A stretch of 64,000 nt of DNA. It comes from an uncultured Bacteroidales bacterium. GTDB taxonomy: Bacteria > Bacteroidota > Bacteroidia > Bacteroidales > WCHB1-69. Under the pieces are notes generated by a model, which did not search any database, was not told the origin of the DNA, and saw only the letters and a program-made list of their open reading frames with translations. How positions within the stretch are numbered: position 1 is the stretch's first letter; each line of letters begins with the position of its first letter. This document shows positions 1,438 through 63,050 of the stretch, in pieces. Both the position numbers and the translations under genes were made by a program. The stretch is taken from assembly GCA_900316305.1 (NCBI GenBank), contig ONCM01000013.1, positions 1-64,000 of the forward strand, given 5' to 3'.

Positions 1438-2934
1438 ATGGCTAACAACGAAGTCAAGAAACTGGCCGGACAGACGGTCATATACGGCGGGAGCACCGTA
1501 CTGGCGCGCCTCCTCAACTACCTGCTGGTGCCGCTCCATACCTACATCTTCCAAAACGCGTCGGATTACGGCGTGGTGGGCGAGCTCTACGCTTGGACCA
1601 GCCTCTTCATCGTGATCCTCACCTACGGCATGGAGACCGCCTTCTTCAAGTTTTCGCAGGACGACAGCATCAAAGACCGCGTCTATAGCACCGTGGTGGG
1701 GTCGCTGTTCGTCACCTCCACCCTCTTCATCGTGCTATGCGGAATCTACTCGCAGCCCATCGCCGACTGGCTGCAATACCCCAACCATCCCGAATATGTG
1801 CGCTGGTTCTCCGTGATTATCGGCGTGGATGCGCTCACCTCCATCTTCTTCGCACACCTGCGGTTTCAGAACCGGGCGATGACCTTTGCGGCGGTGAAAA
1901 TCACCAACATCCTCGTCAACGTGCTGCTCAACCTTTTCTTCCTGCTGCTCTGTCCGTGGCTGCTCACCAAGAACCCCGATTCCGCCTTCGTCAACGCGAT
2001 TTACAACCCTGAAATCGGGGTCGGCTACATCTTTATCGCCAACCTTGTGGCCAGCGTGGTCACCCTGCTGATGCTCTTCCCGGGTATCTTCAAGCAGAAG
2101 TTCGTCTTCGACTGGCAGCTGTGGAAGAAGATGTTCCGCTACGCCTTCCCGTTGCTGATTTTCGGTCTGGCCGGCATCGTGAACGAAACGATGGACCGTG
2201 TGCTGCTCAAGCGGCTGTCGCTCGTCCCCGACCCGCAAGCCTCCGTGGGCATCTACAGCGCTTGCTACAAGATCTCCATCATGATGACCATCTTCATCCA
2301 GGCTTTCAAATACGCTGCGGAGCCCTTCTTCTTCCGCAAAGCGAAGGACAAGGACGCGAAAGAGACCTACGCCGAAGTGATGACCGCCTTTGTGCTGGTC
2401 TGCTCGATCATCTTCGTGGGCATCATGCTCTACATCGACCTCGTGCAATATTTCGTTGGACCGGGCTACCGCGTGGGTCTGCCCATCGTGCCTATCTTGC
2501 TGATGGCCAACCTCTTCCTCGGTATCTTCTACAATCTTTCAATCTGGTACAAGCTCACCAGCCAGACCAAGTTCGGAGCCTACATCGCTATCTTCGGAGC
2601 GGTCATCACCCTGGTTCTCAACTGGTTGCTGATCCCGCGTTTCGACTATATGGGTGCAGCCTGGACCACCTTCGCCTGCTACTTCTCCATGATGGTCGTC
2701 TCCTACCTCCTCGGTCAGAAGTACTACCATGTCGATTACGACCTCAAGCGCATCCTCTTCTACCTCTTCTTCGCGGTGGCCGTCTATGGCCTGAGCCTCG
2801 GTGTCAATAAGCTTTTCGGCATCGAAAAGGTTTGGGTACGGTTGGCGGTGAACACGGTGATTTTGATCGGGTATTTGGGAGTGCTGGCGTGGATGAACCG
2901 GGAAGAACTTAAGAAGTTAGTAGTTAGAAGTTAG
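1438..2934 (+). CDS. polysaccharide biosynthesis flippase (Wzx/MATE-like)
   Basis: 498 residues, almost wholly hydrophobic, with about a dozen or more predicted membrane helices. The N-terminal pattern (LAGQTVIYGGSTVLARLLNY) and length match the MOP-superfamily lipopolysaccharide or O-antigen exporters that flip undecaprenyl-linked sugars across the inner membrane. The frame extends upstream to a GTG at 1408, but that would put the start inside the hairpin of repeat copy 1; ATG 1438 is preferred. The last codons (KKLVVRS and TAG) are written in a TTAG-type heptamer array, so the natural C-terminus has probably been replaced. The gene is bracketed by two direct copies of the two-hairpin repeat. 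Confidence 0.85.
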   Translation: MANNEVKKLAGQTVIYGGSTVLARLLNYLLVPLHTYIFQNASDYGVVGELYAWTSLFIVILTYGMETAFFKFSQDDSIKDRVYSTVVGSLFVTSTLFIVLCGIYSQPIADWLQYPNHPEYVRWFSVIIGVDALTSIFFAHLRFQNRAMTFAAVKITNILVNVLLNLFFLLLCPWLLTKNPDSAFVNAIYNPEIGVGYIFIANLVASVVTLLMLFPGIFKQKFVFDWQLWKKMFRYAFPLLIFGLAGIVNETMDRVLLKRLSLVPDPQASVGIYSACYKISIMMTIFIQAFKYAAEPFFFRKAKDKDAKETYAEVMTAFVLVCSIIFVGIMLYIDLVQYFVGPGYRVGLPIVPILLMANLFLGIFYNLSIWYKLTSQTKFGAYIAIFGAVITLVLNWLLIPRFDYMGAAWTTFACYFSMMVVSYLLGQKYYHVDYDLKRILFYLFFAVAVYGLSLGVNKLFGIEKVWVRLAVNTVILIGYLGVLAWMNREELKKLVVRS

Positions 2935-2947
2935 TAGTTAGCAGTTG
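2912..2947. repeat. heptamer array, TTAGTAG type
   Basis: Five units of period 7 (AAGTTAG, TAGTTAG, AAGTTAG, TAGTTAG, CAGTTG). The first units lie inside the flippase reading frame and provide its stop codon at 2932-2934. Confidence 0.8.
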
Positions 2948-2974
2948 TAACGGGAAGTATCAGATAAACTTTCG

Positions 2975-3038
2975 CGTGCCGGAGGCACGAAAGCTCAATA
3001 ACCCCATACAAGCGTAACGCAGTGGAGCGCAGTGTGGG
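2975..3038 (+). repeat. two-hairpin repeat unit, copy 2
   Basis: Hairpin 1 is CGTGCC-GGA-GGCACG (2975-2989); the linker AATAACCCCATAC is shared with the other copies; hairpin 2 closes with GTGTGGGG at 3031-3038. Direct orientation relative to copy 1, on the other side of the flippase gene. Confidence 0.75.
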
Positions 3039-3312
3039 GTAGCGGAAGCGACGCGGGACAGGCGTGCAGGATGCACGCTACTAACTCAGGAGCAAGTTGT
3101 TTGTCGTTTACCTATGATGCTGTAAAACAATCGAACACAAAACAACTAAAACTTTTTCTTTCAACAAACTGCAACCTTTCGAGTTTTTTGCATCATAATA
3201 ACAGACAATGTTGTTGTTTTTGCAGCGTCGTTTTCTTCAGATAATGTTTAATGGACTTCGCATCATCTGCGAAAACGATGTAAATAGTGACCAACCAGAA
3301 GTCCCCTATATT
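3039..3312. other. spacer without a recognised gene
   Basis: About 270 bp between repeat copy 2 and the membrane-protein gene. It contains a small GCGTGCA/TGCACGC hairpin near 3062-3078 and an A/T-rich tract. A TGTTTTTGC-like string near 3211 could be a weak -7 element. No coding sequence is supported; an in-frame extension of the next gene to 3208 is possible but lacks family support. Confidence 0.5.
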
Positions 3313-9920: not shown

Positions 9921-11078
9921 ATGAAGATATTATTTGTTATCAACAACTTTTATATCAAGGGAAACGGCCTTTCCGGATCGGCACGGCGCACCGTGAAGGC
10001 GCTTCGGGAGGCCGGACAGGAGGTGCGTGTGCTCTCCGCTGCTAATCCCGACCCCGAGGGTCCGCAGCCCGACTACGTGCTGGAAAAGTTCACCATGCCC
10101 TTTGTGCAGCCGCTGCTCACCCCGCAAGGCATCTCAATGGCCAAGAAAGACCCGAAGCTCATCGAAGAGGCCGTCCGCTGGGCGGATCTGGTGCATTTGG
10201 AGGAGGCTTTCACCTTGCAGTTCAAGACTTTGAATATCGCGAAACGGTTGGGCAAACCGGTGACCGCCACCTACCACTACCATCCCGAAAACGTGTTCAG
10301 TACCATGAAAATGGGTCGCTGGCATCTTCCGAACCGCTGCATGCTACTGACCTATCGGTTCGCGGTCTATAACCGTTGCGATATGATCCAATGCCCGACG
10401 GAAAACGTGAAGGAGCGGCTGCTCCGTTACCGCGTCAACGTGCCGATGCGGGTGATTTCCAACGGAGTGATTCCCGACGAATGTTTGCGTCCGGAAACAC
10501 CGCCGGCGGACTATTTCGACGAGAACCGCCCGCTGAAGGTGATCTGCATCGGACGCCTCTCCGACGAGAAAGACCAGCCCACCCTCTTCAAAGCCATGAA
10601 ATACAGCCAATTCGCCAAGCGCATACAGCTGCAATTTGCGGGACAGGGTCCGACCGAAAAAGCCCTGAAACGTCGTGGAAAAAAGCTCGTGGACGAAGGC
10701 GTGCTCACCTACATGCCCGAATTCGGGTTCTATTCGCATCAGGAGCTCTGTCAGCTGATGGCGGATGCCGACTTGTGCGTACACTGCGCCACCACCGAAG
10801 TGGAGGGTCTCAGTGTGATGGAGGCCCTGCAGCAGGGAACCGTACCCGTGATCGCCACCGCCAAATACAGCGCCACCGCCCAGTTCGCCCTTGACGACCG
10901 CAGCACTTTTCCCGGAAGAAATCCAAAAGCGTTAGCCCAGCGCATCGACTACTGGCTCTCCCACCCCAAAGAGCGCTGGGAAATGGGCAGGAAATACGTG
11001 GAATCAATGAAAAAATACGACATCTCCGCAAGCGTACAAGCGCTTATCAAGATGTTTGAGGAGGTGCTTCCTCACTGA
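9921..11078 (+). CDS. family 4 glycosyltransferase, paralogue 1
   Basis: 385 residues from ATG 9921; an upstream in-frame ATG at 9894 would add nine residues not shared with its two paralogues. GT-B fold: N-terminal Rossmann strand KILFVINNF and NGLSGSARRTV loop; C-terminal donor-binding half with VICIGRLSDEKDQPTL and the EX7E signature E293...E301 (EVEGLSVME). Retaining nucleotide-sugar transferase acting at the inner membrane face, probably on a lipid or polysaccharide acceptor. The diacylglycerol glucosyltransferase group is one possibility; substrate not readable. First of three tandem copies. Confidence 0.85.
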   Translation: MKILFVINNFYIKGNGLSGSARRTVKALREAGQEVRVLSAANPDPEGPQPDYVLEKFTMPFVQPLLTPQGISMAKKDPKLIEEAVRWADLVHLEEAFTLQFKTLNIAKRLGKPVTATYHYHPENVFSTMKMGRWHLPNRCMLLTYRFAVYNRCDMIQCPTENVKERLLRYRVNVPMRVISNGVIPDECLRPETPPADYFDENRPLKVICIGRLSDEKDQPTLFKAMKYSQFAKRIQLQFAGQGPTEKALKRRGKKLVDEGVLTYMPEFGFYSHQELCQLMADADLCVHCATTEVEGLSVMEALQQGTVPVIATAKYSATAQFALDDRSTFPGRNPKALAQRIDYWLSHPKERWEMGRKYVESMKKYDISASVQALIKMFEEVLPH

Positions 11079-11102
11079 TTAATGACTGCTTCCCTATTCC
11101 CC

Positions 11103-11160
11103 AAACCCCTAACCTCTTAAACCTTAAACCCTAAACCTTAAACCTTAAACCTTAAACCCT
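11103..11160. repeat. heptamer array, AAACCTT/AAACCCT type
   Basis: About six exact 7-bp units from 11118 (TAAACCT variants) preceded by degenerate ones. It fills the spacer between glycosyltransferases 1 and 2. Read on the minus strand the units are close to TTTAGGG. Confidence 0.85.
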
Positions 11161-11276
11161 ATTGCCTATAGGTTGTTGCCTCAAAAAGTCGACAGCCTTC
11201 CTTTTTTTTGCCAAAAACCAATAATCAACATTTAATCACATCTGATTATCAATAATTTACATTTACTAAAAAATGT

Positions 11277-11284
11277 TAATTTTG
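11277..11284 (+). promoter_or_regulatory. -7 box TAATTTTG
   Basis: Exact consensus match, 27 bp before the ATG of glycosyltransferase 2. Copies 2 and 3 therefore probably have their own promoter. Confidence 0.7.
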
Positions 11285-11311
11285 CCGCCGTGTTTTTGAA
11301 ATAGTGATTAT

Positions 11312-12484
11312 ATGAAGATTCTATTTGTAGTAAACAACATTTTCTGTCAAGGTAACGGTCTTGACGCTTCCGCACGGCGAACCGTTCAGGCACTTCGCGA
11401 TGCAGGACAAGACGTGCGTGTCCTTTCGTGCGAAAATGTGAACGACCCCAATGGTCCGCAACCAGAGTTTAGACAGAAGGAATTCATTTTCCCATTATTC
11501 CAGCCTATTATCAAAGCGCAAGGTTATTCTTTCGCCAAATGGAGAGGATCGGTCATTGAAGAAGCCGTTCGTTGGGCGGATGTCGTGCATATTGAAGAGC
11601 CGTTCTTCATCGAACATGCCGCCATGAATTGGGCAAAGAAACTTGGAAAACCGCTCACAGCAACCTATCACTTGCACCCCGAAAACATTTTCTACTCGCT
11701 CGGATTGGGCAATTGGTCGTTTCCAAACAATAGGCTCTTGCGATATTGGTCTCGCGTTTTCCTCGACAATTGCCTGTATGTGCAATGCCCTACTGAAAAC
11801 GTCCGGGAACGATTGAATAGTTTTCATGTCAAAGCTCATTGCATAACGCTTTCCAACGGATTGATTCCCGACAAATGTATTCGTCCTGCAACACCACCAG
11901 AGGGATATTATGACGAAAATCGTCCTTTAGAGGTGATTTACATCGGCCGTTTTTCTGGAGAAAAGGACCAGCCCACACTGCTTGAAGCCATGCGCTATAG
12001 CAAATACGCTCATCGAATTCAATTGCACTTCGCGGGTGGCGGCCCCAAAGAGAAGCAATACAAGCGTTTATCGTCAAAGCTCATGAAAGAGGGAGTGCTC
12101 AAATACGATCCCATTTTCGGGTTCTATAACCGAGATCAGCTACGCCAAATTGCCGCCAAAGCCGATTTGGCCGTGCATTGCGCCATCATCGAAGTGGAAG
12201 GTTTGAGCATCATGGAGGCCATGCAGCAGGCAGTGGTACCGGTGATTGCCGTTGGACATTGTTCCGGCACATCGCAATTCGCCTTGGATGATCGCAGCAA
12301 ATTCCCGACAAAAGATCCTAAAGCGCTCGCAAAGCGTATTGATTACTGGCTTGATCATCCGAAAGAGCGTTGGGAGATGGGGTTCAAGTACGCCGAATCG
12401 ATGGAGCAATATGACATTGCCCATAGCGTGAAAGGCCTCGTCGAGATGTTCGAAGCGGCGATTGATAAAAACAAAACCAAATAA
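11312..12484 (+). CDS. family 4 glycosyltransferase, paralogue 2
   Basis: 390 residues, collinear with paralogues 1 and 3. Conserved blocks: KILFVVNNIF, NGLDASARRTVQAL, the VIYIGRFSGEKDQPTL phosphate-binding region and EVEGLSIME (EX7E). The C-terminus KYAESMEQYDIAHSV is the closest match to the fossil fragment at 7130. Its codon use is visibly more AT-rich than paralogues 1 and 3, which suggests a different history, either older divergence or import. Sixteen bases separate it from paralogue 3, so the two are likely cotranscribed. Confidence 0.85.
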   Translation: MKILFVVNNIFCQGNGLDASARRTVQALRDAGQDVRVLSCENVNDPNGPQPEFRQKEFIFPLFQPIIKAQGYSFAKWRGSVIEEAVRWADVVHIEEPFFIEHAAMNWAKKLGKPLTATYHLHPENIFYSLGLGNWSFPNNRLLRYWSRVFLDNCLYVQCPTENVRERLNSFHVKAHCITLSNGLIPDKCIRPATPPEGYYDENRPLEVIYIGRFSGEKDQPTLLEAMRYSKYAHRIQLHFAGGGPKEKQYKRLSSKLMKEGVLKYDPIFGFYNRDQLRQIAAKADLAVHCAIIEVEGLSIMEAMQQAVVPVIAVGHCSGTSQFALDDRSKFPTKDPKALAKRIDYWLDHPKERWEMGFKYAESMEQYDIAHSVKGLVEMFEAAIDKNKTK

Positions 12485-12500
12485 TCATTAAACCTATACA

Positions 12501-13676
12501 ATGAAAATTCTATTTGTAGTAAACAACTTTTTCTGTGAAGGAAATGGCCTTGACGAATCGGCCAGACGAACCGTGAAGGCGCTGCGCGAGGCTGGACAGG
12601 AAGTGCGGGTGCTTTCGGGCAAAAATCTGGAAGACCCCAACGGTCCACACGCGGATTATGAGATGGAAAACTTCGATTTTCCGTTGGTACAGCCGATGCT
12701 CTCCTCCTTTGGCTACCATTTTGCCAAATGGAAGGGACCTCAGATTGAGGAGGCGGTCCGCTGGGCGGATGTCATTCACATGGAGGAGACCTTCTTCCTC
12801 CATCGTGCTGCCATGAAATGGGCATTGAAATTAGGAAAACCGCTTGTGGGCACCTATCACGTCCATCCGGAAAACATCATATTCAACGCCTTGGGATTCC
12901 GTGCCGGTTTCCTGACGTGCCAACTGATTTTGCGCCATTGGTGTCGCACATTCTATCGTCATTACAAATATATACAATGTCCTACGGAGAATGTCCGGGA
13001 ACGACTGGTTCGCCATCGCGTCAAAGCGCACTGTTTCACGCTCTCCAACGGTGTGATTCCCGATAAGTGCATTCGTCCGCTCACGCCGCCAGAGAACTAC
13101 TTCGACGAGAATCGTCCGCTCGACCTGATTTACATCGGTCGCACCGCTGTGGAGAAGGACCAACCGACTTTGTACAAGGCGATTCGTCTCAGCAAGTACG
13201 CGAAACGCATCCGGTTGCATATTGCAGGACGCGGTCCCAAGCTGAAGGAATACACGCGCATGGCCGAGAAGCTCTATGAAGACGGTGTGGTGGGCTATAA
13301 GCCGACCATTGGCTACTACAACCGCGATCAGCTGCGCGAACTGGCTGCCAATGCCGATTTGGCCGTCCATTGCGCCTACATTGAGGTGGAAGGCATGAGC
13401 ATTACAGAAGCATTGCAACAGGCCGTTGTGCCCGTGATCGCTACTGCCCGCCACTCCGGCACCGCCGCATACGCCTTGGACGACCGCAGCAAATTCCCCG
13501 CGAAAAACGCCAAAGTCCTCGCCGAGCGCATCGACTACTGGTTCGACCACCCGCAGGAGCGTTGGGAGATGGGCTTCAAATACGCCGAGTCGATGAACAA
13601 CTACGACATCAACACCGTGGTTGCGAAACGACTCATTGAGATGTATGAGGCGGCGATACGGGAACAGGAAAACTAA
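12501..13676 (+). CDS. family 4 glycosyltransferase, paralogue 3
   Basis: 391 residues, same architecture as its two neighbours: KILFVVNNFF start, NGLDESARRTVKAL loop, LIYIGRTAVEKDQPTL and EVEGMSITE (EX7E). The acceptor-binding loops (about residues 110-150) differ most between the three copies, which may mean different acceptors, for example sequential sugars on one glycolipid. This is inference. It ends just before the rsgA promoter. Confidence 0.85.
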   Translation: MKILFVVNNFFCEGNGLDESARRTVKALREAGQEVRVLSGKNLEDPNGPHADYEMENFDFPLVQPMLSSFGYHFAKWKGPQIEEAVRWADVIHMEETFFLHRAAMKWALKLGKPLVGTYHVHPENIIFNALGFRAGFLTCQLILRHWCRTFYRHYKYIQCPTENVRERLVRHRVKAHCFTLSNGVIPDKCIRPLTPPENYFDENRPLDLIYIGRTAVEKDQPTLYKAIRLSKYAKRIRLHIAGRGPKLKEYTRMAEKLYEDGVVGYKPTIGYYNRDQLRELAANADLAVHCAYIEVEGMSITEALQQAVVPVIATARHSGTAAYALDDRSKFPAKNAKVLAERIDYWFDHPQERWEMGFKYAESMNNYDINTVVAKRLIEMYEAAIREQEN

Positions 13677-13700: not shown

Positions 13701-13736
13701 AGCCAAAAGCCAAAAGCCAATAGCTAATAGCTAAAG
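13701..13736. repeat. heptamer array, CAAAAGC/TAATAGC type
   Basis: About five 7-bp units (CAAAAGC twice, CAATAGC, TAATAGC, TAAAG) in the rsgA leader. Same family as the arrays at 16530, 40645 and the second half of 59467. Confidence 0.8.
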
Positions 13737-14682: not shown

Positions 14683-14706
14683 TTAGCCGTTAGTAGTTAG
14701 CAGTTG
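14682..14706. repeat. heptamer array, TTAGTAG type
   Basis: About three units (TTAGCCG, TTAGTAG, TTAGCAG) starting directly at the rsgA stop codon. Confidence 0.7.
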
Positions 14707-16004: not shown

Positions 16005-16048
16005 TTCATATTCATAATTCTACATTTTTCATTCTACATTCTACATTT
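16005..16048. repeat. heptamer array, ATTCTAC/ATTCATA type
   Basis: About five degenerate 7-bp units of ATTCATA, ATTCTAC and ATTTTTC in the AT-rich spacer. Same family as 25680 and 39397. Confidence 0.65.
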
Positions 16049-16163: not shown

Positions 16164-16532
16164 ATGAAAGGTGTATATACATTTTTGCTGCTGATATGTT
16201 CGAATGTGTTCATGACATTCGCGTGGTACAGTCATCTTAAACTGCAAAGTACAGCCTGGTTCAGCAAACTGTCGCTCCCGATGGTGATTCTCTTCAGCTG
16301 GGGTATCGCGCTGATCGAGTACTGCTTCATGGTGCCGGCCAACCGTATTGGCTTCATTGACAACGGCGGTCCGTTCAACCTCTGGCAGCTCAAGGTCATC
16401 CAGGAGTTCCTCTCGTTGACCATCTTCACCATCTTCATGTTGATCTTCTTCAAGGATCAGACCTTCACCGTCAACCATTTCATCGGATTCTGTTTTCTGA
16501 TCTTGGCGGTGTATTTCATTTTTAAAAAATAG
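16164..16532 (+). CDS. DUF486 / DMT-family small membrane protein
   Basis: 122 residues with four hydrophobic segments (about 5-22, 36-56, 72-92, 100-120). The blocks SNVFMTFAWYSHLK, SWGIALIEYCFMVPANRIG and LKVIQEFLSL are those I associate with DUF486, distant relatives of EamA/DMT transporters. Transport substrate unknown. Its TAG stop at 16530-16532 is the first base-triplet of a heptamer array. Confidence 0.85.
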   Translation: MKGVYTFLLLICSNVFMTFAWYSHLKLQSTAWFSKLSLPMVILFSWGIALIEYCFMVPANRIGFIDNGGPFNLWQLKVIQEFLSLTIFTIFMLIFFKDQTFTVNHFIGFCFLILAVYFIFKK

Positions 16533-16614
16533 CTATTGGCTATTAGCTTTTGGCTGTTAGCTTTTGGCTTCGTAATGACGATTTTGGGCCAACAGCCAAT
16601 GGCTAAAGGCTAAT
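16530..16614. repeat. heptamer array with inverted arms, TAGCTATTGGC type
   Basis: The left arm (16530-16570) has TATTGGC, TATTAGC, TTTTGGC, TGTTAGC and TTTTGGC units. The right arm (16590-16614) has the complementary CCAACAGCCAATGGC type. The arms can pair over a ~20-nt loop. The array starts at the DUF486 stop codon and may act as its terminator. Confidence 0.75.
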
Positions 16615-16924: not shown

Positions 16925-17356
16925 ATGCCGCATAGCGCCGTCATCGGACTGGGCAGCAACCTGGGGAACCGCCAATTCTATCTGCAGATGGCCAACTGTC
17001 TGATCGGATGGGAAGTGGGAGCTATTGTGCGTCGCTCCACCGTCATCGAGACCCCGGCCTGGGGCTTCGAGTCCGACCCTTTCCTGAACCAAGTGATCGT
17101 GGTGGAGACCGAGCTCTCCCCAATGGAACTGTTGGATACCCTGCAATCTATCGAACGCCGTCTGGGGCGCACGCAGAAGAGCACCGTGGTGGATGGAAAA
17201 CCCGTCTATCACGCCCGTACCATCGATCTGGACATTCTGGACTATGACCGCATGAAACTGCAAAACGACCGTCTCACGCTGCCGCATCCGCACATCGCGG
17301 AACGCGAGTTCGTGATGGTACCTTTGCGCGAACTAGGGATCGACATCGGTTATTAA
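16925..17356 (+). CDS. folK: 2-amino-4-hydroxy-6-hydroxymethyldihydropteridine pyrophosphokinase
   Basis: 143 residues, a typical short HPPK. Signatures: IGLGSNLGNR at the start, ETPAWGFESDPFLNQV, and the closing RTIDLDILDYD and LPHPHIAEREFVMVPL blocks, with the two Asp of DLDILD binding Mg-ATP. It transfers pyrophosphate from ATP to hydroxymethyl-dihydropterin in folate synthesis. Neighbours: the 49-residue ORF upstream and a deoxynucleoside kinase downstream, so part of a cofactor/nucleotide stretch. Confidence 0.95.
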   Translation: MPHSAVIGLGSNLGNRQFYLQMANCLIGWEVGAIVRRSTVIETPAWGFESDPFLNQVIVVETELSPMELLDTLQSIERRLGRTQKSTVVDGKPVYHARTIDLDILDYDRMKLQNDRLTLPHPHIAEREFVMVPLRELGIDIGY

Positions 17357-17407
17357 CCATAAACCATAAACTATAAACTATAAACTATAAACTATTAACC
17401 ATTAACT
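17354..17407. repeat. heptamer array, ATAAACT/ATAAACC type
   Basis: Seven units of period 7 fill the whole spacer from the folK stop codon to the ATG of the kinase. Confidence 0.85.
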
Positions 17408-20099: not shown

Positions 20100-20724
20100 G
20101 AAGAAATACCTGATTGTGGGGTTGGGTAACGCCGAGCAGCAGTATGCCGGCACGCGCCACAACTACGGTTTTGAGGTGGCCAATGCGGTGGCCAACGAAT
20201 TCAAGACCACCTTCAAGAGCGACAGGCTGGCTTACGTGGCCCGCGCCTCCTTCAAGGGTCGGGAACTCGTGATCATCATGCCCACCACCTACATGAACCT
20301 CAGTGGCAAGGCCGTAAAATACTGGCTTGCGGAAGAGAACGTCGCTGTCGATCACTGTCTGGTCATCTACGATGACATCGACCTCCCGTTGGGCATCTTC
20401 AAGATGAAGCCCAAGGGCGGCGCGGGCACCCACAACGGCATCGGCAACATTATTGAGACGTTGGACACCACAGACATTCCGCGCATGCGTTGCGGTATCG
20501 GCAAAAACTACGCCCAAGGTTATCAGGTGGATTACGTGCTGGGACGTTTCTCCAGCGAGGAACTGAAATTGGTGGAGCCCTGCATTAAAAGGGCTGTGAG
20601 TGCGGTGAAGTCGTTCGTCACGGTGGGAATGTCGATGACGATGAACCAGTTCAACACGAAAGAGACGGAGCTGGGAAAGAAATTAGAGAGCGAGGAAGCG
20701 ATGAAAAACGAGAATGATCGATGA
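20089..20724 (+). CDS. pth: peptidyl-tRNA hydrolase
   Basis: 211 residues from ATG 20089, a start that overlaps rsmD by 11 bp. Signatures: LIVGLGNAEQQYAGTRHNYGF with catalytic H24, PTTYMNLSG, and KGGAGTHNGIGN. It cleaves peptidyl-tRNA released from ribosomes. The final residues (EAMKNENDR) and the TGA stop are written in CGATGAA-type repeat sequence, so the C-terminal tail looks like repeat-derived extension. Confidence 0.95.
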   Translation: MENEKKYLIVGLGNAEQQYAGTRHNYGFEVANAVANEFKTTFKSDRLAYVARASFKGRELVIIMPTTYMNLSGKAVKYWLAEENVAVDHCLVIYDDIDLPLGIFKMKPKGGAGTHNGIGNIIETLDTTDIPRMRCGIGKNYAQGYQVDYVLGRFSSEELKLVEPCIKRAVSAVKSFVTVGMSMTMNQFNTKETELGKKLESEEAMKNENDR

Positions 20725-20760
20725 AAAAAGCGATGAAAAACGATGAATAATACGATGAAA
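20699..20760. repeat. CGATGAA array
   Basis: Five CGATGA(A) words at irregular 9-15 bp spacing (near 20699, 20719, 20731, 20741, 20753). It contains the pth stop (CGATGA) and both possible starts of the next gene (20743, 20755). Confidence 0.8.
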
Positions 20761-21351
20761 AAACTGATTTTCTTAATGATGTTGGGGTTGTCTGTGTGGA
20801 CGCTCAGCGCTCAACGGAATAACGCTCAGAAGTGGTATCAGCTTGGGTTCAGGCTCTCCACCCAATTCCCGCTGGTTCGTGAATATTCCGATGTGGACTA
20901 CCTTGAGAATCAGAAGACGGTCCATTTTGGTGGCTTTTTCCGTGCGGGGAAGTACGTTTACGGCGAAATCGGTATCGGGTACCAATATTTCAGATGCCGC
21001 TATAACACCATAGATTATACTAGTGGTCAGGAGTTGTCCGACATCGTGGAGACGCGCTATCTCGTGATCCCCTTCAAGGCTGTCGGCGATGTACAGATTA
21101 ACAAGAACATCTCGTTCATGCCGATGGTGGGCGTCATCTACCAGCCGTTGTTGAAGGTTACCGAAAACACGATCGGATACAGCAAGAAGAACATCGAGAA
21201 CCATTGGGCCTTTTTCACCACCGGCTTCGACTGGCGCTTCGCCTTCATCACCGTAGGGGTGGATTATCGCATTGCGTTGCAGGATTTCTTCTACGACAAG
21301 GCGGGAAGGAACCCGCAATACATCGGCATTTCCCTGGGTGCTATCTTCTAA
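20743..21351 (+). CDS. outer-membrane beta-barrel protein
   Basis: 202 residues with signal peptide (KKLIFLMMLGLSVWTLSAQ). The rest alternates hydrophobic and polar residues as short beta strands (YVYGEIGIGYQYF, FFTTGFDWRFAFITVGVDYRIAL) and ends ISLGAIF, typical of small eight-strand barrels in the PorT/OmpW-like group. Substrate unknown. The ATG at 20743 and the one at 20755 both lie in CGATGAA repeat units; the second gives a cleaner signal peptide. Confidence 0.75.
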   Translation: MNNTMKKLIFLMMLGLSVWTLSAQRNNAQKWYQLGFRLSTQFPLVREYSDVDYLENQKTVHFGGFFRAGKYVYGEIGIGYQYFRCRYNTIDYTSGQELSDIVETRYLVIPFKAVGDVQINKNISFMPMVGVIYQPLLKVTENTIGYSKKNIENHWAFFTTGFDWRFAFITVGVDYRIALQDFFYDKAGRNPQYIGISLGAIF

Positions 21352-23099: not shown

Positions 23100-23143
23100 C
23101 GCCTATTCATCGGTTTTCATCGATCATTCATCGTCCTTCATCG
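23092..23143. repeat. CGATGAA array (minus sense)
   Basis: Five TTCATCG/TTTCATCG words fill the spacer between lepB and the protease gene and include the protease start codon. Confidence 0.8.
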
Positions 23144-23144
23144 C

Positions 23145-24785: not shown

Positions 24786-24903
24786 TTTTAATAATGGTTA
24801 TTGGTTATGGGTTATTGGTTATTGAAGTTTATTGTTTAAGGTTTAAGGTTTAGGGTTTTGAAGGTTAAGGTTTAGGGTATAGAAGGTTAGGAGGTTATTG
24901 AAT
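24786..24903. repeat. heptamer arrays, GGTTATT then GGTTTAA type
   Basis: Four GGTTATT/GGTTATG units at about 24796-24826 are followed by AGGTTTA/AGGGTTT units to about 24900. Two heptamer families sit side by side in one spacer between dapB and lepB. Confidence 0.8.
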
Positions 24904-25679: not shown

Positions 25680-25742
25680 GTTTATTCATAATTCATCATT
25701 CTACATTCTACATTCTTCATTCTACATTCTTCATTCTTCATT
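25680..25742. repeat. heptamer array, ATTCTAC/ATTCTTC type
   Basis: About eight 7-bp units between DUF5683 and dapB. The DUF5683 stop codon (TGA, 25738-25740) is inside the array. Confidence 0.85.
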
Positions 25743-26322
25743 TAAAAGACAGTACCAAACTCACCCCATACGACGGTTTCGTATTGATCGGGTTGGAGAA
25801 CACGGACGGACTCCAACGGATGGCCAGATCGTCAGAAACGTCGAAGTAGTAGAGATGGGCATCCACCATGGCGTCAATGAAGTTGAGGGTGTAGATGATA
25901 GCGGTGGCAGCGATGCAAATTTCCATATTCCGCTGCGCTTCCTGCTTCATGGCCAGAATATTCTCATCCGGATATTCGGCCAGTCCAGGTACTAGCTGAT
26001 CAATATTACCATCCCTACGATTGATGAATTCGCGACGGTAGAGCATCATGTCGGAGGCATACATCGTGAGAAAATAGCTGGAAGCCCCCAACATTGTGTA
26101 GATGATCGGCACTTTCCAGTATTTCCGGTTATAGATCTGTCCCCCTCCGGGAATGATGGAATAGAGAATGGCTGCTGTGGGACTGTGTTTGGCGACCCGC
26201 AGCGAATCGTGGGTTTTTACATGGGAGGTGTTAGGGGAGGTAATGTCTTGGGAATATGCGAACAGACTCATACAGAGCATGATAACTATTGCAAGAATCT
26301 GTTTCATATTTTTCATACGCAC
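25738..26322 (-). CDS. DUF5683 domain protein
   Basis: Up to 194 residues; starts at 26322, 26316 or 26307 are all possible. A signal peptide or anchor (QILAIVIMLCMSLFAYSQ) is followed by the DUF5683 core: HSPTAAILYSIIPGGGQIYNRKYWKVPIIY, then two more hydrophobic segments. Usually encoded next to parB in this phylum, as here. Membrane protein of unknown function; the GGGQIYN motif resembles those of small envelope proteins. Confidence 0.85.
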   Translation of the reverse strand: MRMKNMKQILAIVIMLCMSLFAYSQDITSPNTSHVKTHDSLRVAKHSPTAAILYSIIPGGGQIYNRKYWKVPIIYTMLGASSYFLTMYASDMMLYRREFINRRDGNIDQLVPGLAEYPDENILAMKQEAQRNMEICIAATAIIYTLNFIDAMVDAHLYYFDVSDDLAIRWSPSVFSNPINTKPSYGVSLVLSFK

Positions 26323-27308: not shown

Positions 27309-27349
27309 TCGTTTAACTGCTAACTACTAACTCCTAACTGCTAACTAAA
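27309..27349. repeat. heptamer array, TTAGTAG type (minus sense)
   Basis: About five units (CTAACTG, CTAACTA, CTAACTC). The parA stop codon (27345-27347) is inside it. A stretch just before it (27245-27300) looks like ordinary spacer. Confidence 0.85.
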
Positions 27350-33540: not shown

Positions 33541-33611
33541 AGTTTCAGGTTTCAGGTTTCAAGTAGCAATTTCGAAATCTCACTTGAAACATGAAACATG
33601 AAACATGAAAC
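33541..33611. repeat. heptamer array with inverted arms, GTTTCAG/CATGAAA type
   Basis: Left: AGTTTCAGGTTTCAGGTTTC (period 7). Right: four GAAACAT units (period 7), the approximate complement. Together they make a hairpin upstream of the mfd promoter. Confidence 0.8.
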
Positions 33612-33620
33612 TAATTTTCG

Positions 33621-33628: not shown

Positions 33629-33643
33629 CCGACTTTTTCGATT

Positions 33644-36600: not shown

Positions 36601-36998
36601 CCGAGCGCATGAACCTCTACAAGGAGCTGGAATCCATCAAGGAGGAGAGCAAGTTGGAGGAATTCCGCAAGAAAATCACCGACATCTTCGGTCCGATGCC
36701 ACGCGAAACCGAGGAACTGATGCAGACTATCCCGTTACGCATGCTCGCCGCCGACCTTCACTTCGAGAAGATCGTCCTCAAGAAAAAGGTCTTCCACGGC
36801 TACTTCACTGGCAACTCGCATTCCCCCTACTTCCAATCCGACGAATTCGGCAAGTTCCTGCTCTTCATGCAGACGAACCATCCCGTCGTCCAGCTCAAGG
36901 AGGCCAACCACAAGCTGGTTTGCAGCATCCACAACATCCCGACCTTCAAGGCGGCGTATCATTGGCTGGGGAAGATGCAGCAGGCAGTTAGGAGTTAG
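33644..36998 (+). pseudogene. mfd: transcription-repair coupling factor Mfd, disrupted by a ~32-nt deletion
   Basis: From MTLNELKKKYY the frame covers the UvrB-like N-terminal domains, the RNA polymerase-interaction domain (about 450-520), and the RecG-like motor with GDVGFGKTE (Walker A) and IIDEEQKFG. At about 36332, after LNDQARKR, the frame is lost; the continuation GSGIHIALRDLDIRGAGDILG is in another frame and runs to TAG 36998. Homologues have about ten residues between ARKR and GSG, so ~32 nt are missing. Truncation would remove motif VI and the C-terminal domain. The last residues (AVRS) and stop are heptamer-derived. Real decay or assembly error. Confidence 0.85.
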
Positions 36999-37011
36999 TA
37001 GTTAGCAATTG
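36984..37011. repeat. heptamer array, TTAGGAG/TTAGTAG type
   Basis: Three to four units; codes AVRS and the stop codon of the mfd frame (TAG 36996-36998). Confidence 0.8.
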
Positions 37012-39449: not shown

Positions 39450-40661
39450 ATGCAACATATCAACGAACCCACCCTCCAGTACATCTCCGCCCACGCCTCC
39501 GACGACGTGACCCATCTCGCCCTGCATCCCTCCAGGGACCCGCAGGTCGATATGAGCGTGGCGCTGCAACAGATCGCCGGACGGCAGAAAGCCAAGGAGA
39601 AGCTGCCCGAGTGGTACGCCACCGAGGGTATTCTCTATCCGAAAAAGGTCTCCATGGAGCAGTGCTCGTCGTCGCAAACGGCTGAGTATAAGGCATCCCT
39701 AGTGGAAGGGAAATCCTTCGCAGACTTCAGCGGCGGATTCGGGGTGGACACCGTCGCTTTCGCCAAAAAGTTCGCGAAAGGCTGGTACGTGGAACCGCAA
39801 GAAGAACTCTGCGAACTTTTTCAACACAACTGCAAAGTGCTGGATATCAACAATGTTGATATCATCAACGGTACGATGGAGGACAACCTTGCCTCCATTG
39901 AGCACTTGGACATGATCTACCTTGACCCGTCCCGACGCGACACGCACGGTCGGCGGGTGGTCTCCTTGTCGGACTGCACCCCCAACCTCCTCGAATGGAA
40001 ATCCGCCCTATTGGAACGTTGTAACATCTTGATGGTCAAAATGTCCCCAATGATCGACATTTTCCAAACATTGCGGGATTTGCCCGAAACGTACGCGGTA
40101 CACGTGGTGGCCGTGGAGGGGGAATGTAAGGAGGTTTTATTCCTATTGTCCCGTGGAGACGCGCCATGGCACGTCTCTACAACGTCCCCAACCATCGTTG
40201 CCGTCGATATTAACAAAACCGCCACATTCCGTGTTGAAACCATCTTGAAAACCGAACACACCACCCCACCCCAAATCGCCATAGAATTAGGCACTTACCT
40301 CTACGAACCCAACGCCGCCGTGATGAAGGCCGGCATCTTCAACGCCCTGTCGCAAAAGTTCCAAATTTCGAAACTGGCGAAGAACACCAACCTATTCACA
40401 TCCAACGAATTGCACGAGAATTTTCCAGGTCGCGTTTTCACCATTGAGGCCGTCCATGAGTTTCACCCGCGCAAAACGGCCAAGGAACTCTCGCACCTCG
40501 AAAGCGCCAGCATCGCCGTGCGAAACTTTCCGCTGACGGCAGAGGAATTACGTAAAACGCTGAAAATCAAAGACGGGAATACGTGTTATCTGTTCGGGTG
40601 CACACTTTGGGATGGAAGGAAAGTGGTGGTGGTTGGAGACAAGTTGGCTATTAACTATTAG
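39450..40661 (+). CDS. THUMP-like class I SAM-dependent methyltransferase
   Basis: 403 residues. Rossmann methyltransferase: FADFSGGFGVDTVAFAKKF (motif I, about 90-108), IYLDPSRRDTHGRRV (catalytic-type DPSR loop), then a C-terminal THUMP-like domain (GTYLYEPNAAVMKAGIF, ENFPGRVFTIEAVHEF). RNA is the likely substrate. Residues RGDAPWHVST near 235-245 are encoded by an inserted GTGGAGACG palindrome, and the C-terminus KLAINY plus TAG is heptamer-derived. Confidence 0.8.
   Translation: MQHINEPTLQYISAHASDDVTHLALHPSRDPQVDMSVALQQIAGRQKAKEKLPEWYATEGILYPKKVSMEQCSSSQTAEYKASLVEGKSFADFSGGFGVDTVAFAKKFAKGWYVEPQEELCELFQHNCKVLDINNVDIINGTMEDNLASIEHLDMIYLDPSRRDTHGRRVVSLSDCTPNLLEWKSALLERCNILMVKMSPMIDIFQTLRDLPETYAVHVVAVEGECKEVLFLLSRGDAPWHVSTTSPTIVAVDINKTATFRVETILKTEHTTPPQIAIELGTYLYEPNAAVMKAGIFNALSQKFQISKLAKNTNLFTSNELHENFPGRVFTIEAVHEFHPRKTAKELSHLESASIAVRNFPLTAEELRKTLKIKDGNTCYLFGCTLWDGRKVVVVGDKLAINY
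40153..40180. repeat. 28-bp palindrome inside the THUMP-like gene
   Basis: Halves GTGGAGACGCGCCA and TGGCACGTCTCTAC pair at 12 of 14 positions. In frame, encoding RGDAPWHVST, the same R-D...H-VST pattern as the copy at 32454. Confidence 0.85.
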
Positions 40662-40716
40662 CTATTGGCTGTTAGCTAAAAGCAAAAAGCCAAAGGCCAA
40701 AAGCTAAAAGCTAACA
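40645..40716. repeat. heptamer array with inverted arms, TATTAGC / CAAAAGC type
   Basis: The left half has TATTAAC, TATTAGC, TATTGGC and TGTTAGC units; the right half has AAAAGC-type units. It fills the convergent spacer and supplies the stop codons of both neighbours: TAG 40659-40661 on plus and TAG 40711-40713 on minus. Confidence 0.85.
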
Positions 40717-50682: not shown

Positions 50683-50688
50683 ATATAG

Positions 50689-50741
50689 TTTAAGGTTTAA
50701 TGTTTACGGGTTTAATAATGGTTATTGGTTATTGGTTATTG
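50689..50741. repeat. heptamer array, GGTTTAA / GGTTATT type
   Basis: A degenerate GTTTAAGGTTTAATG part followed by three clean GGTTATT units (50719-50741). Same family as 24786. Confidence 0.75.
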
Positions 50742-50781: not shown

Positions 50782-50840
50782 GTTCATCGTTTTTCATCGT
50801 TTTTCATCGCTCATTCATCGCTCATTCATCGCATCATCGC
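50782..50840. repeat. CGATGAA array (minus sense)
   Basis: Six TTCATCG / TTTTTCATCG words. The stop codon of the EEP-family gene (TGA at 50834-50836) lies in a CGATGA unit of this array. Confidence 0.85.
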
Positions 50841-51856
50841 GTCAGCACAATGTACACCGGCAAATGGTCGCTATAGCCGCCTTGGTAGTTGCCGCCGGCG
50901 AAAGTACGGTAGGGATAGTCCATGTAGGAGCCGGATTTGGTAAACAAGTAGTCTTTGCGGAAGATGTGTGCCGAGCGGAACTTATAGGTGCCCGGAACCG
51001 CATTCACGAGTCCGCCGGAGATGATGATGTTGTCGAGCATCTCCCAAGAGTCGCGATAAGCGTAAGAGCCAAGACCGTCGCGGAAAAGTTTCCACATCGG
51101 GTTGTAAAGGTCGTATTGGGTGAGATTTTCGGGCTTCGTTTTGGTGTTCATCTCCGCAATAATGCACTTGGAGGTCGGATTGTCGTTCAAGTCTCCCATG
51201 TAGATAAACTTGGCGTTGGGACGAGAATGGAGCACGGAATCGGCAATCTGACGGCCCAGCTGACCGGCTGCAATACGGCCGGGAAGGCTCCGTTTCTCGC
51301 CACCCGACTTGGAAGGCCAGTGGTTGACGACAATGTCCAAAGTGTCAACACCGTCCAAAATGCCGGTCATCAGCCATTGGTCACGGGTGATAAAGTCGGG
51401 GTTGTTGGGGACAATCGTCGGGAAAGCTCTGGTACTGAGAATTTTGAAACGGGAGGCATCATAGAAGAAGGCCACATCCACACCACGGCGATCGGGTGAT
51501 TCGTGGTGACAAACAGAGAGACGATAGGGTTTCAGGAGTTCGGTAGCTGCCAGATCCAGCAGAACCTGTTCGTTTTCAATTTCGGAAACCCCCAGCACCA
51601 CCAGGCCGCCCTCCAGCCTTGCCATCTCGGCAATCACTTTAGAGAGACTCTTTAACTTAGCCTCGTAACGCGCTGAACCCCAGCGGTAATCACCGTCAGG
51701 AAGAAACTGTTCGTCGTTCTTGAGCGGATCGTCAATCGTATCAAATAGGTTTTCAACATTATAAAAGCCTACAACCGCCTTATTATGAGACGATTGCGCA
51801 ATCGCGCACAGGGTCATCACGCACAGGACTAGTATCAAGGATATCTTTCTCATACT
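50834..51856 (-). CDS. endonuclease/exonuclease/phosphatase family protein, secreted
   Basis: 340 residues from ATG 51856. Signal peptide (RKISLILVLCVMTLCAIAQ), then GFYNVENLFDTIDDP, LGVSEIENEQVL (metal Glu), IVVNHWPSKSGGE (catalytic His) and YMGDLNDNPTS, and the closing SDHLPVYIVL (SDH). This is the DNase I/EEP fold; the variant with NVENLFDT is common in Bacteroidota. Substrate probably nucleic acid or phospho-diester; periplasmic. Confidence 0.85.
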   Translation of the reverse strand, partial: SMRKISLILVLCVMTLCAIAQSSHNKAVVGFYNVENLFDTIDDPLKNDEQFLPDGDYRWGSARYEAKLKSLSKVIAEMARLEGGLVVLGVSEIENEQVLLDLAATELLKPYRLSVCHHESPDRRGVDVAFFYDASRFKILSTRAFPTIVPNNPDFITRDQWLMTGILDGVDTLDIVVNHWPSKSGGEKRSLPGRIAAGQLGRQIADSVLHSRPNAKFIYMGDLNDNPTSKCIIAEMNTKTKPENLTQYDLYNPMWKLFRDGLGSYAYRDSWEMLDNIIISGGLVNAVPGTYKFRSAHIFRKDYLFTKSGSYMDYPYRTFAGGNYQGGYSDHLPVYIVLTR

Positions 51857-53168: not shown

Positions 53169-53195
53169 GAATTATGAATTATGAATTATGAATTG
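53169..53195. repeat. heptamer array, GAATTAT type
   Basis: Three GAATTAT units plus GAATTG. It encodes the last residues (FIIHNS) and stop of asd on the minus strand. Confidence 0.85.
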
Positions 53196-59436: not shown

Positions 59437-59466
59437 ATTTTCAAAATTTAAGGGGTTAATAATTCA

Positions 59467-59550
59467 GTGAGCAGTTAGCAGTTAGTAGTTAGTAGTTAGC
59501 AGTTTAAGGGAAACGTGATAGCTAACAGCCAACAGCTAAAAGCTAAAAGC
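59467..59550. repeat. heptamer arrays, TTAGCAG/TTAGTAG then TAAAAGC type
   Basis: About five TTAG units (59471-59505), then ACAGCCA, ACAGCTA and AAAGCTA units (59520-59550). Two families in one spacer upstream of clpB. Confidence 0.85.
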
Positions 59551-61568: not shown

Positions 61569-62939
61569 ATGTTATTTAAGAACGCTTTTGAACAGCAACC
61601 TTCTCTGCGATACGTATATGAAAATATGCGGTTCGACTCCGGTTTGGGCCGTCAGTACCTGCTGAATCTGCCTTTTCAGACGGATGCCACCGCTCTCGCT
61701 GCCGAATTCGACCAGCTGGAGGCCGTGATTGCCCTCAGTCAGGACGAAAACTGCCGTCCCACGCTCTCTCATCTCCGTCAGCAGATCCACCAACTCAACA
61801 ACATCGCCCCCACCCTGCTCGCGCTCGCCAACGGAGCCGTACTCGACGATGTTCAACTCTTTGAGATAAAGAAAACGGCCATTTTGACGAAAGTGATTGC
61901 TCAGGACGTGGAGAATTTGGAAATCTCATGGTTGCAATACGCACCCATGGACGAGGTGATTGCCATTTTGGATCCGGAGCATACGCATATCCCGCATTTC
62001 TACGTCTATTCCGCTTACGATGAAGACTTGGCTTGTCTGCGCGAGAAGATCAAAGCGGCCGGGGATTCGCAGGAGGCGGAGACATATCGTTTTCAGGCCC
62101 AGAAGATTGAGGATCAGTTACGGGCAAAACTCAGCGACCAGCTACGGCCTCATCAGGAGGCGTTGTCCAACAACCTGCGGAACACCGCACGGCTGGACCT
62201 GCTCATCGCCAAGTCAAGATTGGCTGCGGAGTGGCATGCCTGCAAACCCGTCATTGGCGACCGACACGTGCTCACCGACATCATCAACCCGGAAATTGCG
62301 GCGGCACTGGCGGTGAAAGGCCGTAACTTCCAGCCCGTCAGCATCTCCTTCGGGCGCGAAACCGTCCTCATCACGGGCGCGAACATGGCCGGCAAGTCGG
62401 TGCTGCTACAGACGGTAGCCCTCGCGCAGTACCTGTTCCAGTTCGGATTCTTCCTGCCAGCCGAAGCGGCGACGCTGCCCGTCGTGGACGAGGTCATCAC
62501 CAGCATCGGCGACCGGCAGTCGGCCCTTAGCGGTTTGTCCTCCTTCGCCGTCGAAGTGCTCACCATCGACCGCATCATCAAGACCGCCCGCGAAGGTAAG
62601 CGCGTGCTCGCCCTTGTGGATGAGCTCGCCCGCACCACCAACCCCGACGAAGGCAAACGGATGGTCAACGGATTCATCCGCCTCAGTCGCAAACTATCGC
62701 TGACGGCCATCGTGACCACCCACTACAGCGGTCTCGATGTCGATTGCCGACGGATGCGTGTCAAAGGGCTCCAGATCCCTGACGGCATCAACTCGCTCAG
62801 TATCGGACACATAGCCGACTATATGGACTACTCCCTCGTCGAAACGCACAACGACGACGTTCCTAAAGAGGCGTTCACCATTGCCCGACTGCTGCGTGTG
62901 GATGACGAGTTCCTGACCGAGTGCGGATCCACCGAATAA
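61569..62939 (+). CDS. MutS-like ATPase, short form
   Basis: 456 residues. The C-terminal half is a MutS ATPase: Walker A VLITGANMAGKSVLLQTVAL, the signature-helix region SALSGLSSFAVEV, Walker B VLALVDELARTTNPDEG and the HYSGLD switch. The N-terminal half lacks the mismatch-binding domain of true MutS. Short MutS relatives include KamC, the reactivase ATPase of lysine 5,6-aminomutase, which is known in lysine-fermenting Bacteroidales; this could be it or another MutS-like protein. No lysine fermentation genes are visible to decide. Confidence 0.75.
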   Translation: MLFKNAFEQQPSLRYVYENMRFDSGLGRQYLLNLPFQTDATALAAEFDQLEAVIALSQDENCRPTLSHLRQQIHQLNNIAPTLLALANGAVLDDVQLFEIKKTAILTKVIAQDVENLEISWLQYAPMDEVIAILDPEHTHIPHFYVYSAYDEDLACLREKIKAAGDSQEAETYRFQAQKIEDQLRAKLSDQLRPHQEALSNNLRNTARLDLLIAKSRLAAEWHACKPVIGDRHVLTDIINPEIAAALAVKGRNFQPVSISFGRETVLITGANMAGKSVLLQTVALAQYLFQFGFFLPAEAATLPVVDEVITSIGDRQSALSGLSSFAVEVLTIDRIIKTAREGKRVLALVDELARTTNPDEGKRMVNGFIRLSRKLSLTAIVTTHYSGLDVDCRRMRVKGLQIPDGINSLSIGHIADYMDYSLVETHNDDVPKEAFTIARLLRVDDEFLTECGSTE

Positions 62940-62962
62940 CGAACGAACCTCGAAAAAAAATG

Positions 62963-62970
62963 TATTTTTG
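62963..62970 (+). promoter_or_regulatory. -7 box TATTTTTG
   Basis: Exact consensus match upstream of the HdrC-like gene; the 8-bp array follows it. Confidence 0.7.
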
Positions 62971-62979
62971 CGCTCTTTT

Positions 62980-63050
62980 GTAAAGCTTAAAAGCTTAAAA
63001 GCTTAAAAGCTTACAAGCTTACAAGCTTACAAGATTACAAGATTAAAGAT
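62980..63050. repeat. 8-bp tandem array, AAAAGCTT/ACAAGCTT type
   Basis: Units of period 8: AAAAGCTT several times, ACAAGCTT twice, ACAAGATT twice, drifting to AAAGATT of period 7. The leader of the HdrC-like operon. Confidence 0.85.

What the first reader, a model, noticed from the sequence alone, without database searches (positions are those of the whole stretch)
2912..63050. Different 7-bp tandem arrays in most large spacers
Arrays with an exact 7-bp period occur at 2912, 11103, 13701, 14682, 16005, 16530, 17354, 24786, 25680, 27309, 33541, 36984, 39397, 40645, 50689, 53169 and 59467; an 8-bp one is at 62980 and an 11-bp one at 4945. The heptamer word differs by place (TTAGTAG, AAACCTT, ATAAACT, GGTTATT, ATTCATA, CAAAAGC, CATGAAA), so only the period is shared, as if the mechanism fixes length and not sequence. 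Heptanucleotide STRRs are known from cyanobacteria; I do not know of a description in Bacteroidota. A replication or repair process with a 7-nt footprint is one inference.
Basis: partly seen in the sequence, partly recalled or inferred. Interest (0 to 1): 0.78.

Follow-up and report, generated by a model that had tools for sequence, protein, structure and literature searches.

The report
Polar 7-base repeats between bacterial genes
Gaps between genes in a group of uncultured gut bacteria are often filled with short 7-base repeats that keep changing their word but mostly point away from the neighbouring gene, which ties a known but unexplained 7-base habit of bacterial genomes to a directional rule that can be tested.

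Summary
The window has 19 period-7 arrays against 0.03 in shuffles, and Tandem Repeats Finder has a period-7 row at or near all 17 listed positions. A 272 kb sample of the same genome, from contigs not picked for arrays, has 55. Between related species, 17 of 29 well-anchored spacer indels of 4 nt or more are multiples of 7 (two of these lie in 8-mer arrays).

"Only the period is shared" is incomplete. Words form one mutational network (64 classes in 271 arrays), and arrays are polar: the strand with G>C runs 5'->3' away from the nearest gene at stop and start edges alike (208 outward, 54 inward; held-out part 36:10). Neighbouring arrays of opposite type are ordered G-type then C-type 43 times, never the reverse. 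Codon content, hairpins, reverse transcriptase and Ku do not by themselves explain this.

Intergenic heptamer repeats are known in many prokaryotes, including Bacteroidota, and the 7-nt polymerase idea is in print. The same polarity is printed for single words in Xanthomonas and Nostoc. New here is a many-word version in one Bacteroidales genus. The cause is unsettled; I favour slippage during synthesis running from gene edge into spacer.

The parts
2915..2946 (+). array AGTTAGN; holds the stop codon of the upstream ORF (1408-2934 +)
   Evidence: strand given here and below is the one with G>C
11116..11158 (-). array AAACCYT (RC GGTTTAR)
13701..13734 (-). array AGCYAAN (RC NTTRGCT), 12 bp before the rsgA start
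14683..14705 (+). short array TTAGCAG starting right after the rsgA stop
   Evidence: only; not found by the scorer
16017..16047 (-). array ATTCNNN (RC of AATGNAG)
   Evidence: 16023-16047
16532..16570 (+). array GCTNTTR
17355..17406 (-). array AACYATN ending 1 bp before the start of the deoxynucleoside-kinase-like gene 17408
24795..24824 (+). array GGTTATN (alpha family), 9 bp upstream of the lepB start (lepB on -)
24827..24858 (+). array GTTTAAG, same spacer
25684..25742 (-). array ATTCTAC/ATTCTTC between the stop of ORF 25738-26322 (-) and the start of dapB (-)
   Evidence: the ORF 25738-26322 has homologues in relatives, but the gene model took another ORF as right neighbour
27314..27346 (-). 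array AGTTAGN (on -) beginning at the parA stop codon, parA-parB spacer
33542..33561 (+). array GTTTCAG, left arm of an inverted pair
33585..33611 (.). array TGAAACA, right arm of the inverted pair (G = C)
36986..37005 (+). short array AGTTAGN holding the stop codon of ORF 33605-36991
   Evidence: passes only the looser score
39397..39449 (-). array ATTCATA then ATTCTAC, ending at the ATG at 39450
40648..40714 (.). inverted arrays GCTATTN then AGCYAAA between convergent ORFs
50688..50715 (+). short array GTTTAAG
50719..50741 (+). array GGTTATT (alpha family)
53169..53194 (+). array GAATTAT
59465..59504 (+). array CAGTTAG, left arm in a divergent spacer
59520..59550 (-). array AGCTAAN, right arm in the same spacer
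63039..63074 (+). array AAGGTTA next to the 8-bp array 62982-63047

Best explanation
These are heptanucleotide short tandem repeats (the LSSR/STRR kind) that invade and fill non-coding spacers up to the edges of functional sequence. Shown: they gain and lose whole 7-nt units, change word between sister species at the same locus, and are strand-polar relative to gene edges. Inferred: units are added by slippage during DNA synthesis whose growing 3' end runs from the gene edge into the spacer (for example repair synthesis after breaks or gaps inside the spacer). The C-poor strand is the one being extended, and selection removes arrays that enter genes. The two arms of a spacer then point toward each other with independent words, which is what is seen. 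Why the step is 7 nt remains open. My confidence is about 0.85 for unit-wise slippage and homogenisation, and about 0.35 that the polarity comes from the direction of synthesis rather than from selection on orientation.
For: Period-7 peak. Indels between sister species in steps of 7: 17 of 29 well-anchored indels >=4 nt (the two 56-nt ones are 8-mer arrays, so 15 lie in heptamer arrays). The parA-parB spacer differs in word among array-bearing congeners: by eye, 13 of 14 loci with ParB >=82% have clear heptamers and one is degenerate. Polarity: 208 outward, 54 inward, 9 ties over 271 placed arrays; own-genome sample fetched after the rule was formed 36:10, p=1.6e-4; one vote per word class 46:10, 3 ties; using word orientation without G/C, 163 of 191 arrays in the class-majority outward orientation, null mean 120, maximum of 2000 null draws 135. 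Adjacent arrays in one spacer: G-then-C 43, C-then-G 0, GG 15, CC 10, with words in the two arms no more alike than shuffled (2 same class against 1.4; within one substitution 8 against 4.2, shuffle maximum 11). G-C skew in arrays is 0.39 (stop side) and 0.53 (start side) by the counts; in array-free spacers it is within 0.02 except 0.078 in the 20 nt before starts, and in array-bearing spacers with arrays masked it lies between -0.07 and 0.095. Words neutral for stop and start codons are still polar, 80:14. Five other Bacteroidales families pooled 18:6 (<15 nt from a gene 14:1); Nostoc plasmid 16:6, p=0.05, but only 7:5 within 15 nt of a gene.
Against: No break, gap or nascent strand was observed; polarity is the only support for the direction of synthesis. 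Stop-side arrays 15 nt or more from the gene are not polar (17:18) and those starting 3-40 nt after the stop are only 22:12, whereas start-side ones stay polar to about 80 nt; a purely geometric process should treat both alike. Families alpha and gamma have conserved ends and most often four exact cores, which looks like a copied or constrained element rather than free slippage. The genus has no Ku match (0 of 40), so classical end joining is not on hand. MutS domain I is found in 37 of 40, so loss of mismatch repair is not the general cause.
Confidence: 0.4

Rival explanations
1. Selection on orientation: arrays arise in either orientation, but only C-poor sense words survive after stops and only G-poor sense words survive before starts (extra stops, no spurious starts, open leader).
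For: At stop edges words with a stop codon on one strand only have it on the sense strand in 50 of 66, at start edges in 46 of 68; before starts, words with start codons on one strand only have them on the sense strand in just 13 of 67. In stop-adjacent arrays the stop codon is inside the array in 47 of 100 and repeated at +7 in 30 of 100, against 21 of 713 genes without an array at the stop. Loss of stop-side polarity beyond 15 nt fits it.
Against: Words neutral for stop and start codons are still 80:14. Arrays beginning 0-15 nt after the stop are still 27:5. Array-free spacers show almost no such skew. Two unrelated pressures would have to give the same outward strand for the same word at both edges (18 of 24 classes agree, 6 do not).
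Confidence: 0.3
2. Dispersed small elements: a few ~30-nt elements with internal 7-nt periodicity and fixed ends (AAT(GGTTATN)xTGA; YAGTTAG..CAGTT) are copied between spacers, and slippage only modifies them later.
For: alpha ends are conserved over 55 copies (left, 48 with full flank: A 47, A 40, T 42; right: T 49, G 54, A 51 of 55; of these only the middle left A and the last right A break the period); four exact cores in 31 of 55 alpha and 25 of 45 gamma copies. Four full units is the modal array size, 128 of 325. A Y1-type transposase is found in 36 of 40 genomes: in all 22 that have the ATAACC pattern and in 14 of the 18 that lack it.
Against: Arrays of other words vary from 2 to 12 or more units. 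I identified no target duplication. Y1 transposases are also common in species without the ATAACC pattern (14 of 18). It does not explain orientation relative to genes.
Confidence: 0.2
3. Telomerase-like or DRT-type reverse transcription adds 7-nt units to DNA ends.
For: Telomere-like polarity and fixed end phase; a tandem-repeat-making bacterial RT is in print (PMC12632851, start of abstract in a search listing). RVT_1 is found in 7 of 22 genomes with the ATAACC pattern and 2 of 18 without.
Against: No RVT_1 match in the window's own 97% complete, array-rich genome, nor in 14 further genomes with the pattern.
Confidence: 0.03
4. Sites for an RNA- or DNA-binding factor (Rho-type C-rich loading sites, quadruplexes, hairpins, Csp-type heptamer binding).
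For: Preferred four-unit size in two families; alpha arrays lie mostly on start edges (28 start, 9 stop over three classes) and start-edge arrays most often end 1-13 nt from the start.
Against: YC dinucleotides on the inward strand are not clearly enriched over permuted words (0.76 vs 0.73). The two arms are not complementary beyond shuffles. Wobble palindromes are not enriched (0.80 vs 0.80). Of the 40 commonest classes printed only three have three adjacent G. Words turn over between species.
Confidence: 0.1

Closest known systems
Heptanucleotide long simple sequence repeats / STRRs of cyanobacteria and other prokaryotes (Mrazek 2007 as cited in PMC4679880; PMC6344855)
   Same: Period 7, head to tail, intergenic, genome-wide, different words
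   Different: Here dozens of words in one genus linked by single substitutions, with a measured polarity and unit-step indels between sister species
GGGAATC (Xanthomonas) and GGGGA(C/T)T (Nostoc) quadruplex heptamers, PMC4692102
   Same: In all three organisms the G-rich repeat lies close to genes on the non-coding strand upstream or the coding strand downstream, including overlap with stop codons; in Xanthomonas also convergent pairs and a preference for four units
   Different: G4-forming words, discussed there as possible regulation; pairs are few in Nostoc. Here most words cannot form such quadruplexes
TAACTGA direct repeats of Beggiatoaceae, Cyanobacteria and five Bacteroidetes, PMC4679880
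   Same: Intergenic heptamers; in Flexibacter litoralis 12 of 14 sets forward before starts and one set reverse right after a stop, i.e. the same outward strand (my reading of that text)
   Different: TAACTGA is not among the word classes listed for this genus

Membership tests
Heptanucleotide LSSR/STRR arrays | Excess of tandem period 7 over other periods and over shuffled sequence | tested here: met
Heptanucleotide LSSR/STRR arrays | Mostly intergenic | tested here: met
   18 of 266 arrays inside predicted genes, 9 at ends of stretches
Heptanucleotide LSSR/STRR arrays | Unit copy number varies between relatives at the same locus | tested here: met
   between species; within one species not testable with these tools
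G-quadruplex heptamers (GGGNATC type) | Runs of three or more G in each unit, four units | tested here: not met
   not met for most words: 3 of the 40 commonest classes printed have three adjacent G; the commonest (AGCAGTT, ATTGGTT, AATTATG, AATGTAG) have at most two
TAACTGA repeat family | Word TAACTGA | tested here: not met
   class AACTGAT absent from both full class lists (31 and 57 classes); an array of this class occurs in the Nostoc plasmid L192
Telomerase-like / DRT repeat synthesis | A reverse transcriptase in the genome | tested here: not met
   no match in G000; 9 of 40 genomes of the genus, own included in the 40
Phase-variation simple repeats | Copy number switches expression of a surface gene within a population | not testable with these tools
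   needs strains or reads

The most novel reading that the evidence does not exclude
A general polar process in bacteria adds 7-nt units to DNA 3' ends that point from gene edges into spacers, preferring C-poor words, without a reverse transcriptase. The separate published heptamer families in Xanthomonas, Nostoc and Beggiatoaceae and the many words found here would all be products of this one process, which would make bacterial spacers look like two fused telomere-like ends.
Probability: 0.2. Interest if true: 0.85.

Novelty: new variant of a known kind. Interest (0 to 1): 0.6.

Why it matters
The prevalence of tandem heptamers between bacterial genes is stated as having no clear clue to function in PMC6344855 (passages). 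A polarity rule that holds for dozens of words, at both ends of genes and in spacers of all three gene arrangements, restricts the answer. It speaks against quadruplexes and codon content as general reasons, and it offers a direct experiment (flip or seed an array at a gene edge and count gained units). It also shows a genus with array-rich and array-poor species for comparative work.

Tried and rejected
Reverse transcriptase and Ku end joining: not present where needed. Loss of MutS as general cause: domain found in 37 of 40 genomes. Y1/RAYT transposase as the driver: found in 36 of 40, including 14 of 18 genomes without the ATAACC pattern; but all four genomes without a Y1 match also lack the pattern, so this is not excluded. 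Stop or start codon content as the whole reason for polarity: codon-neutral words still 80:14. Hairpins between the two arms: words not complementary beyond shuffles. Wobble-palindrome (4+3) explanation of the 7-nt step: 0.80 observed vs 0.80 permuted. Rho loading (YC spacing): 0.76 vs 0.73. Spacer composition as the source of the skew: small outside arrays. A whole-locus alignment was too noisy and was replaced by gene-anchored spacers. Search of plasmids with a pure repeat gave no match; the tool filters low complexity.

Limits of the counts: gene models are longest non-overlapping ORFs, not a trained gene finder, and some neighbours are wrong (for example the right neighbour of window 25684-25742). 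The first own-genome sample was mostly chosen from contigs with ATTC arrays; the second came from other contigs, so it is if anything poorer. Contigs of other families were chosen because one search listed arrays there. Of 325 arrays, 271 could be placed relative to a nearer gene edge; those inside genes, at ends of stretches or about equally far from both genes were dropped, and 9 had G = C. The pool includes arrays from other genomes (four were found there). Arrays of one word are related by descent, so single-array p-values overstate independence; the word-class votes are the fairer test. Arrays that overlap predicted starts show no bias (5:4). Trichormus plasmid A showed only 2 arrays in 100 kb and no outward case. 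The modal size of four units is partly shaped by the detection limit near 2.6 units. The output was cut in the middle.
Full report
What was checked. The window is part of a 95,543-base contig of a 3.28 Mb, 99-contig genome. Its nearest named relatives are uncultured Bacteroidales MAGs, many with titles naming rumen or other ruminant stomachs. Tandem Repeats Finder has a period-7 row at or within 17 bases of all 17 listed positions. The window holds 19 arrays at a strict score, against 0.03 in shuffles. In 272 kb of the same genome from contigs not picked for arrays there are 55, with period 6 and 8 at 3 and 7. In 15 genomes of the genus (about 1.18 Mb, own genome included) there are 266 arrays and one in shuffled sequence. 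About half of window spacers of 100-600 bp carry one (10 of 19), so 'most large spacers' is slightly too strong.

Relatives. Of 40 genomes of the genus (own included), 36 have a ParB match at E 4.2e-79 or better and one more only a weak one. Loci with ParB at 82% identity or more have 47-162 nt from the parA stop codon to the parB ATG, with heptamers whose word differs: TTAGCAG, GAATAGT, GAGTTTA, GTTCAAA, ATTCATA, GATAATG, GGTTATT, AATAACC. The more distant loci printed have 14-27 nt and none (read by eye; 13 of 14 near loci clear, one degenerate). Gene-anchored alignments of 38 spacers between three species pairs gave 29 well-flanked indels of 4 nt or more, 17 of them multiples of 7 (two 56-nt cases are 8-mer arrays). 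One spacer shows the same first block but a different second word in the two species (spacer 29), which I read as local homogenisation. The pattern (ATAACCN)3 occurs in 22 of 40 genomes and is concentrated in the array-rich clade.

Polarity. Reading each array outward from the nearest gene edge, the outward strand has G>C in 208 arrays, G<C in 54 and neither in 9. The first sample showed it at stop edges within 15 nt or overlapping (81:15) and at start edges at 0-15 nt (46:4), but not for the few that overlap starts (5:4). The rule was formed on that sample and then tested on own-genome stretches fetched later: 36:10, with array pairs GC 6, CC 3, GG 1. In co-directional spacers the stop-adjacent arrays more than 60 nt from the next start are 49 G-type to 1 C-type on the sense strand, and start-adjacent arrays more than 60 nt from the stop are 26 C-type to 2 G-type. 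Spacers with two or more arrays read G-first, C-last in 37, C-first, G-last in 0, same type in 9, in co-directional, convergent and divergent spacers; over adjacent pairs of the enlarged set it is 43:0 with 25 same-type. One vote per word gives 46:10. Without using G or C at all, 163 of 191 arrays keep their word's majority outward orientation, against 120 expected. Results against the rule: stop-side arrays 15 nt or more away show none (17:18), 6 of 24 words disagree between edges, and the Trichormus plasmid gave nothing usable. Five other Bacteroidales families, sampled from contigs known to hold arrays, pooled 18:6; a Nostoc plasmid 16:6, though 7:5 close to genes.

Words and ends. 271 placed arrays use 64 word classes where independent permuted words would give about 194, and the classes form one cluster under single substitutions, with 118 links against 55 for permuted words. 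So the sequence drifts inside a linked dictionary rather than being free. Two families have conserved ends: alpha AAT-(GGTTATN)-TGA in 55 copies and gamma YAGTTAG-...-CAGTT in 45, with four exact cores the commonest state (31 of 55 and 25 of 45). Array length overall has its mode at four full units, 128 of 325; detection begins near 2.6 units, so the lower side of that distribution is partly the threshold. Stop-adjacent arrays often start inside the stop codon: the codon lies in the array in 47 of 100, and is repeated at +7 in 30 of 100 against 21 of 713 other genes.

Mechanism. Shown: unit-step turnover between species, gene-edge polarity, independence of the two arms. Not the cause, as far as tested: reverse transcriptase (absent from the own genome), Ku, MutS loss, codon content alone, hairpins, Rho-like spacing. 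Y1 transposases are in 22 of 22 genomes with the ATAACC pattern and 14 of 18 without, which leaves room for a copying step. Two readings of the polarity stay open. In the first, synthesis that grows from the gene edge into the spacer slips in 7-nt steps and favours C-poor products. In the second, orientation is selected for different reasons at stops and at starts. The first explains in one step why spacers look symmetric whatever the gene directions; the second explains better why stop-side polarity fades beyond 15 nt. I lean slightly to the first. The step of 7 itself remains unexplained.

Known and new. [quoted passage not shown] The 7-nt polymerase idea is Mrazek et al. 2007, seen only as cited in PMC4679880 and PMC4692102. 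PMC4679880 reports TAACTGA arrays in five Bacteroidetes and notes other heptamer arrays beside them. [quoted passage not shown] for Xanthomonas also convergent pairs and a majority of four units, while pairs are few in Nostoc. That is the same polarity, discussed there in terms of quadruplexes. In six literature searches on heptamer repeats I found no account of the rule for many words in one genome or in Bacteroidales; subscription papers are mostly not held. Hence: a new variant of a known kind.

Noticed in passing
299-391, 422-481, 20696-20764, 23094-23144, 50783-50844: A second repeat family with fixed core TTCATCG/CGATGAA and variable linker. In 704 kb of the own genome successive cores within 40 nt lie mostly 10 (57), 11 (21), 12 (13) or 14 (13) nt apart, with 13 (3), 8 (4) and a few others, near a helical turn. 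In G021/G014 related TCATCG arrays have period 8. Here the core is fixed and the period varies, the opposite of the heptamers.
   Followed up: partly
L225 (G000 C68) 10106-12801, minus strand: mutS of the window's own genome lies in two ORFs (127 and 771 aa) overlapping by 4 nt in different frames; a MAG error or a real lesion. Other array-rich relatives with a MutS match have a long open frame there, so the split is not needed for arrays.
   Followed up: partly
spacers of L053, L095, G021C21, G040C208; window 27232-27344: REP-like palindromes (GGTCGAAGGACC...CCCC, GTAGAGACG...CGTCTCTAC) recur between or beside the arrays of different words.
   Followed up: no
G001-G055: Within one genus, species with ParB at 67-73% identity have 0-10 matches of the ATAACC pattern, against up to 203 in the nearer clade (G003 of the near clade has only 4), and 14-27 nt parA-parB spacers where printed; a natural array-rich/array-poor comparison.
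   Followed up: partly
62982-63047: An 8-bp array (AAAGCTTA) continues into a 7-bp one (63039-63074), a change of period inside one array.
   Followed up: no
L192, L226-L228 (Nostoc plasmid pNPM1): 26 period-7 arrays in 200 kb against 6 of period 8 and 0 or 1 for periods 5, 6, 9, 10 and 11, words such as CAGGAGT, AATTGCG and a TAACTGA-class array.
   Followed up: partly
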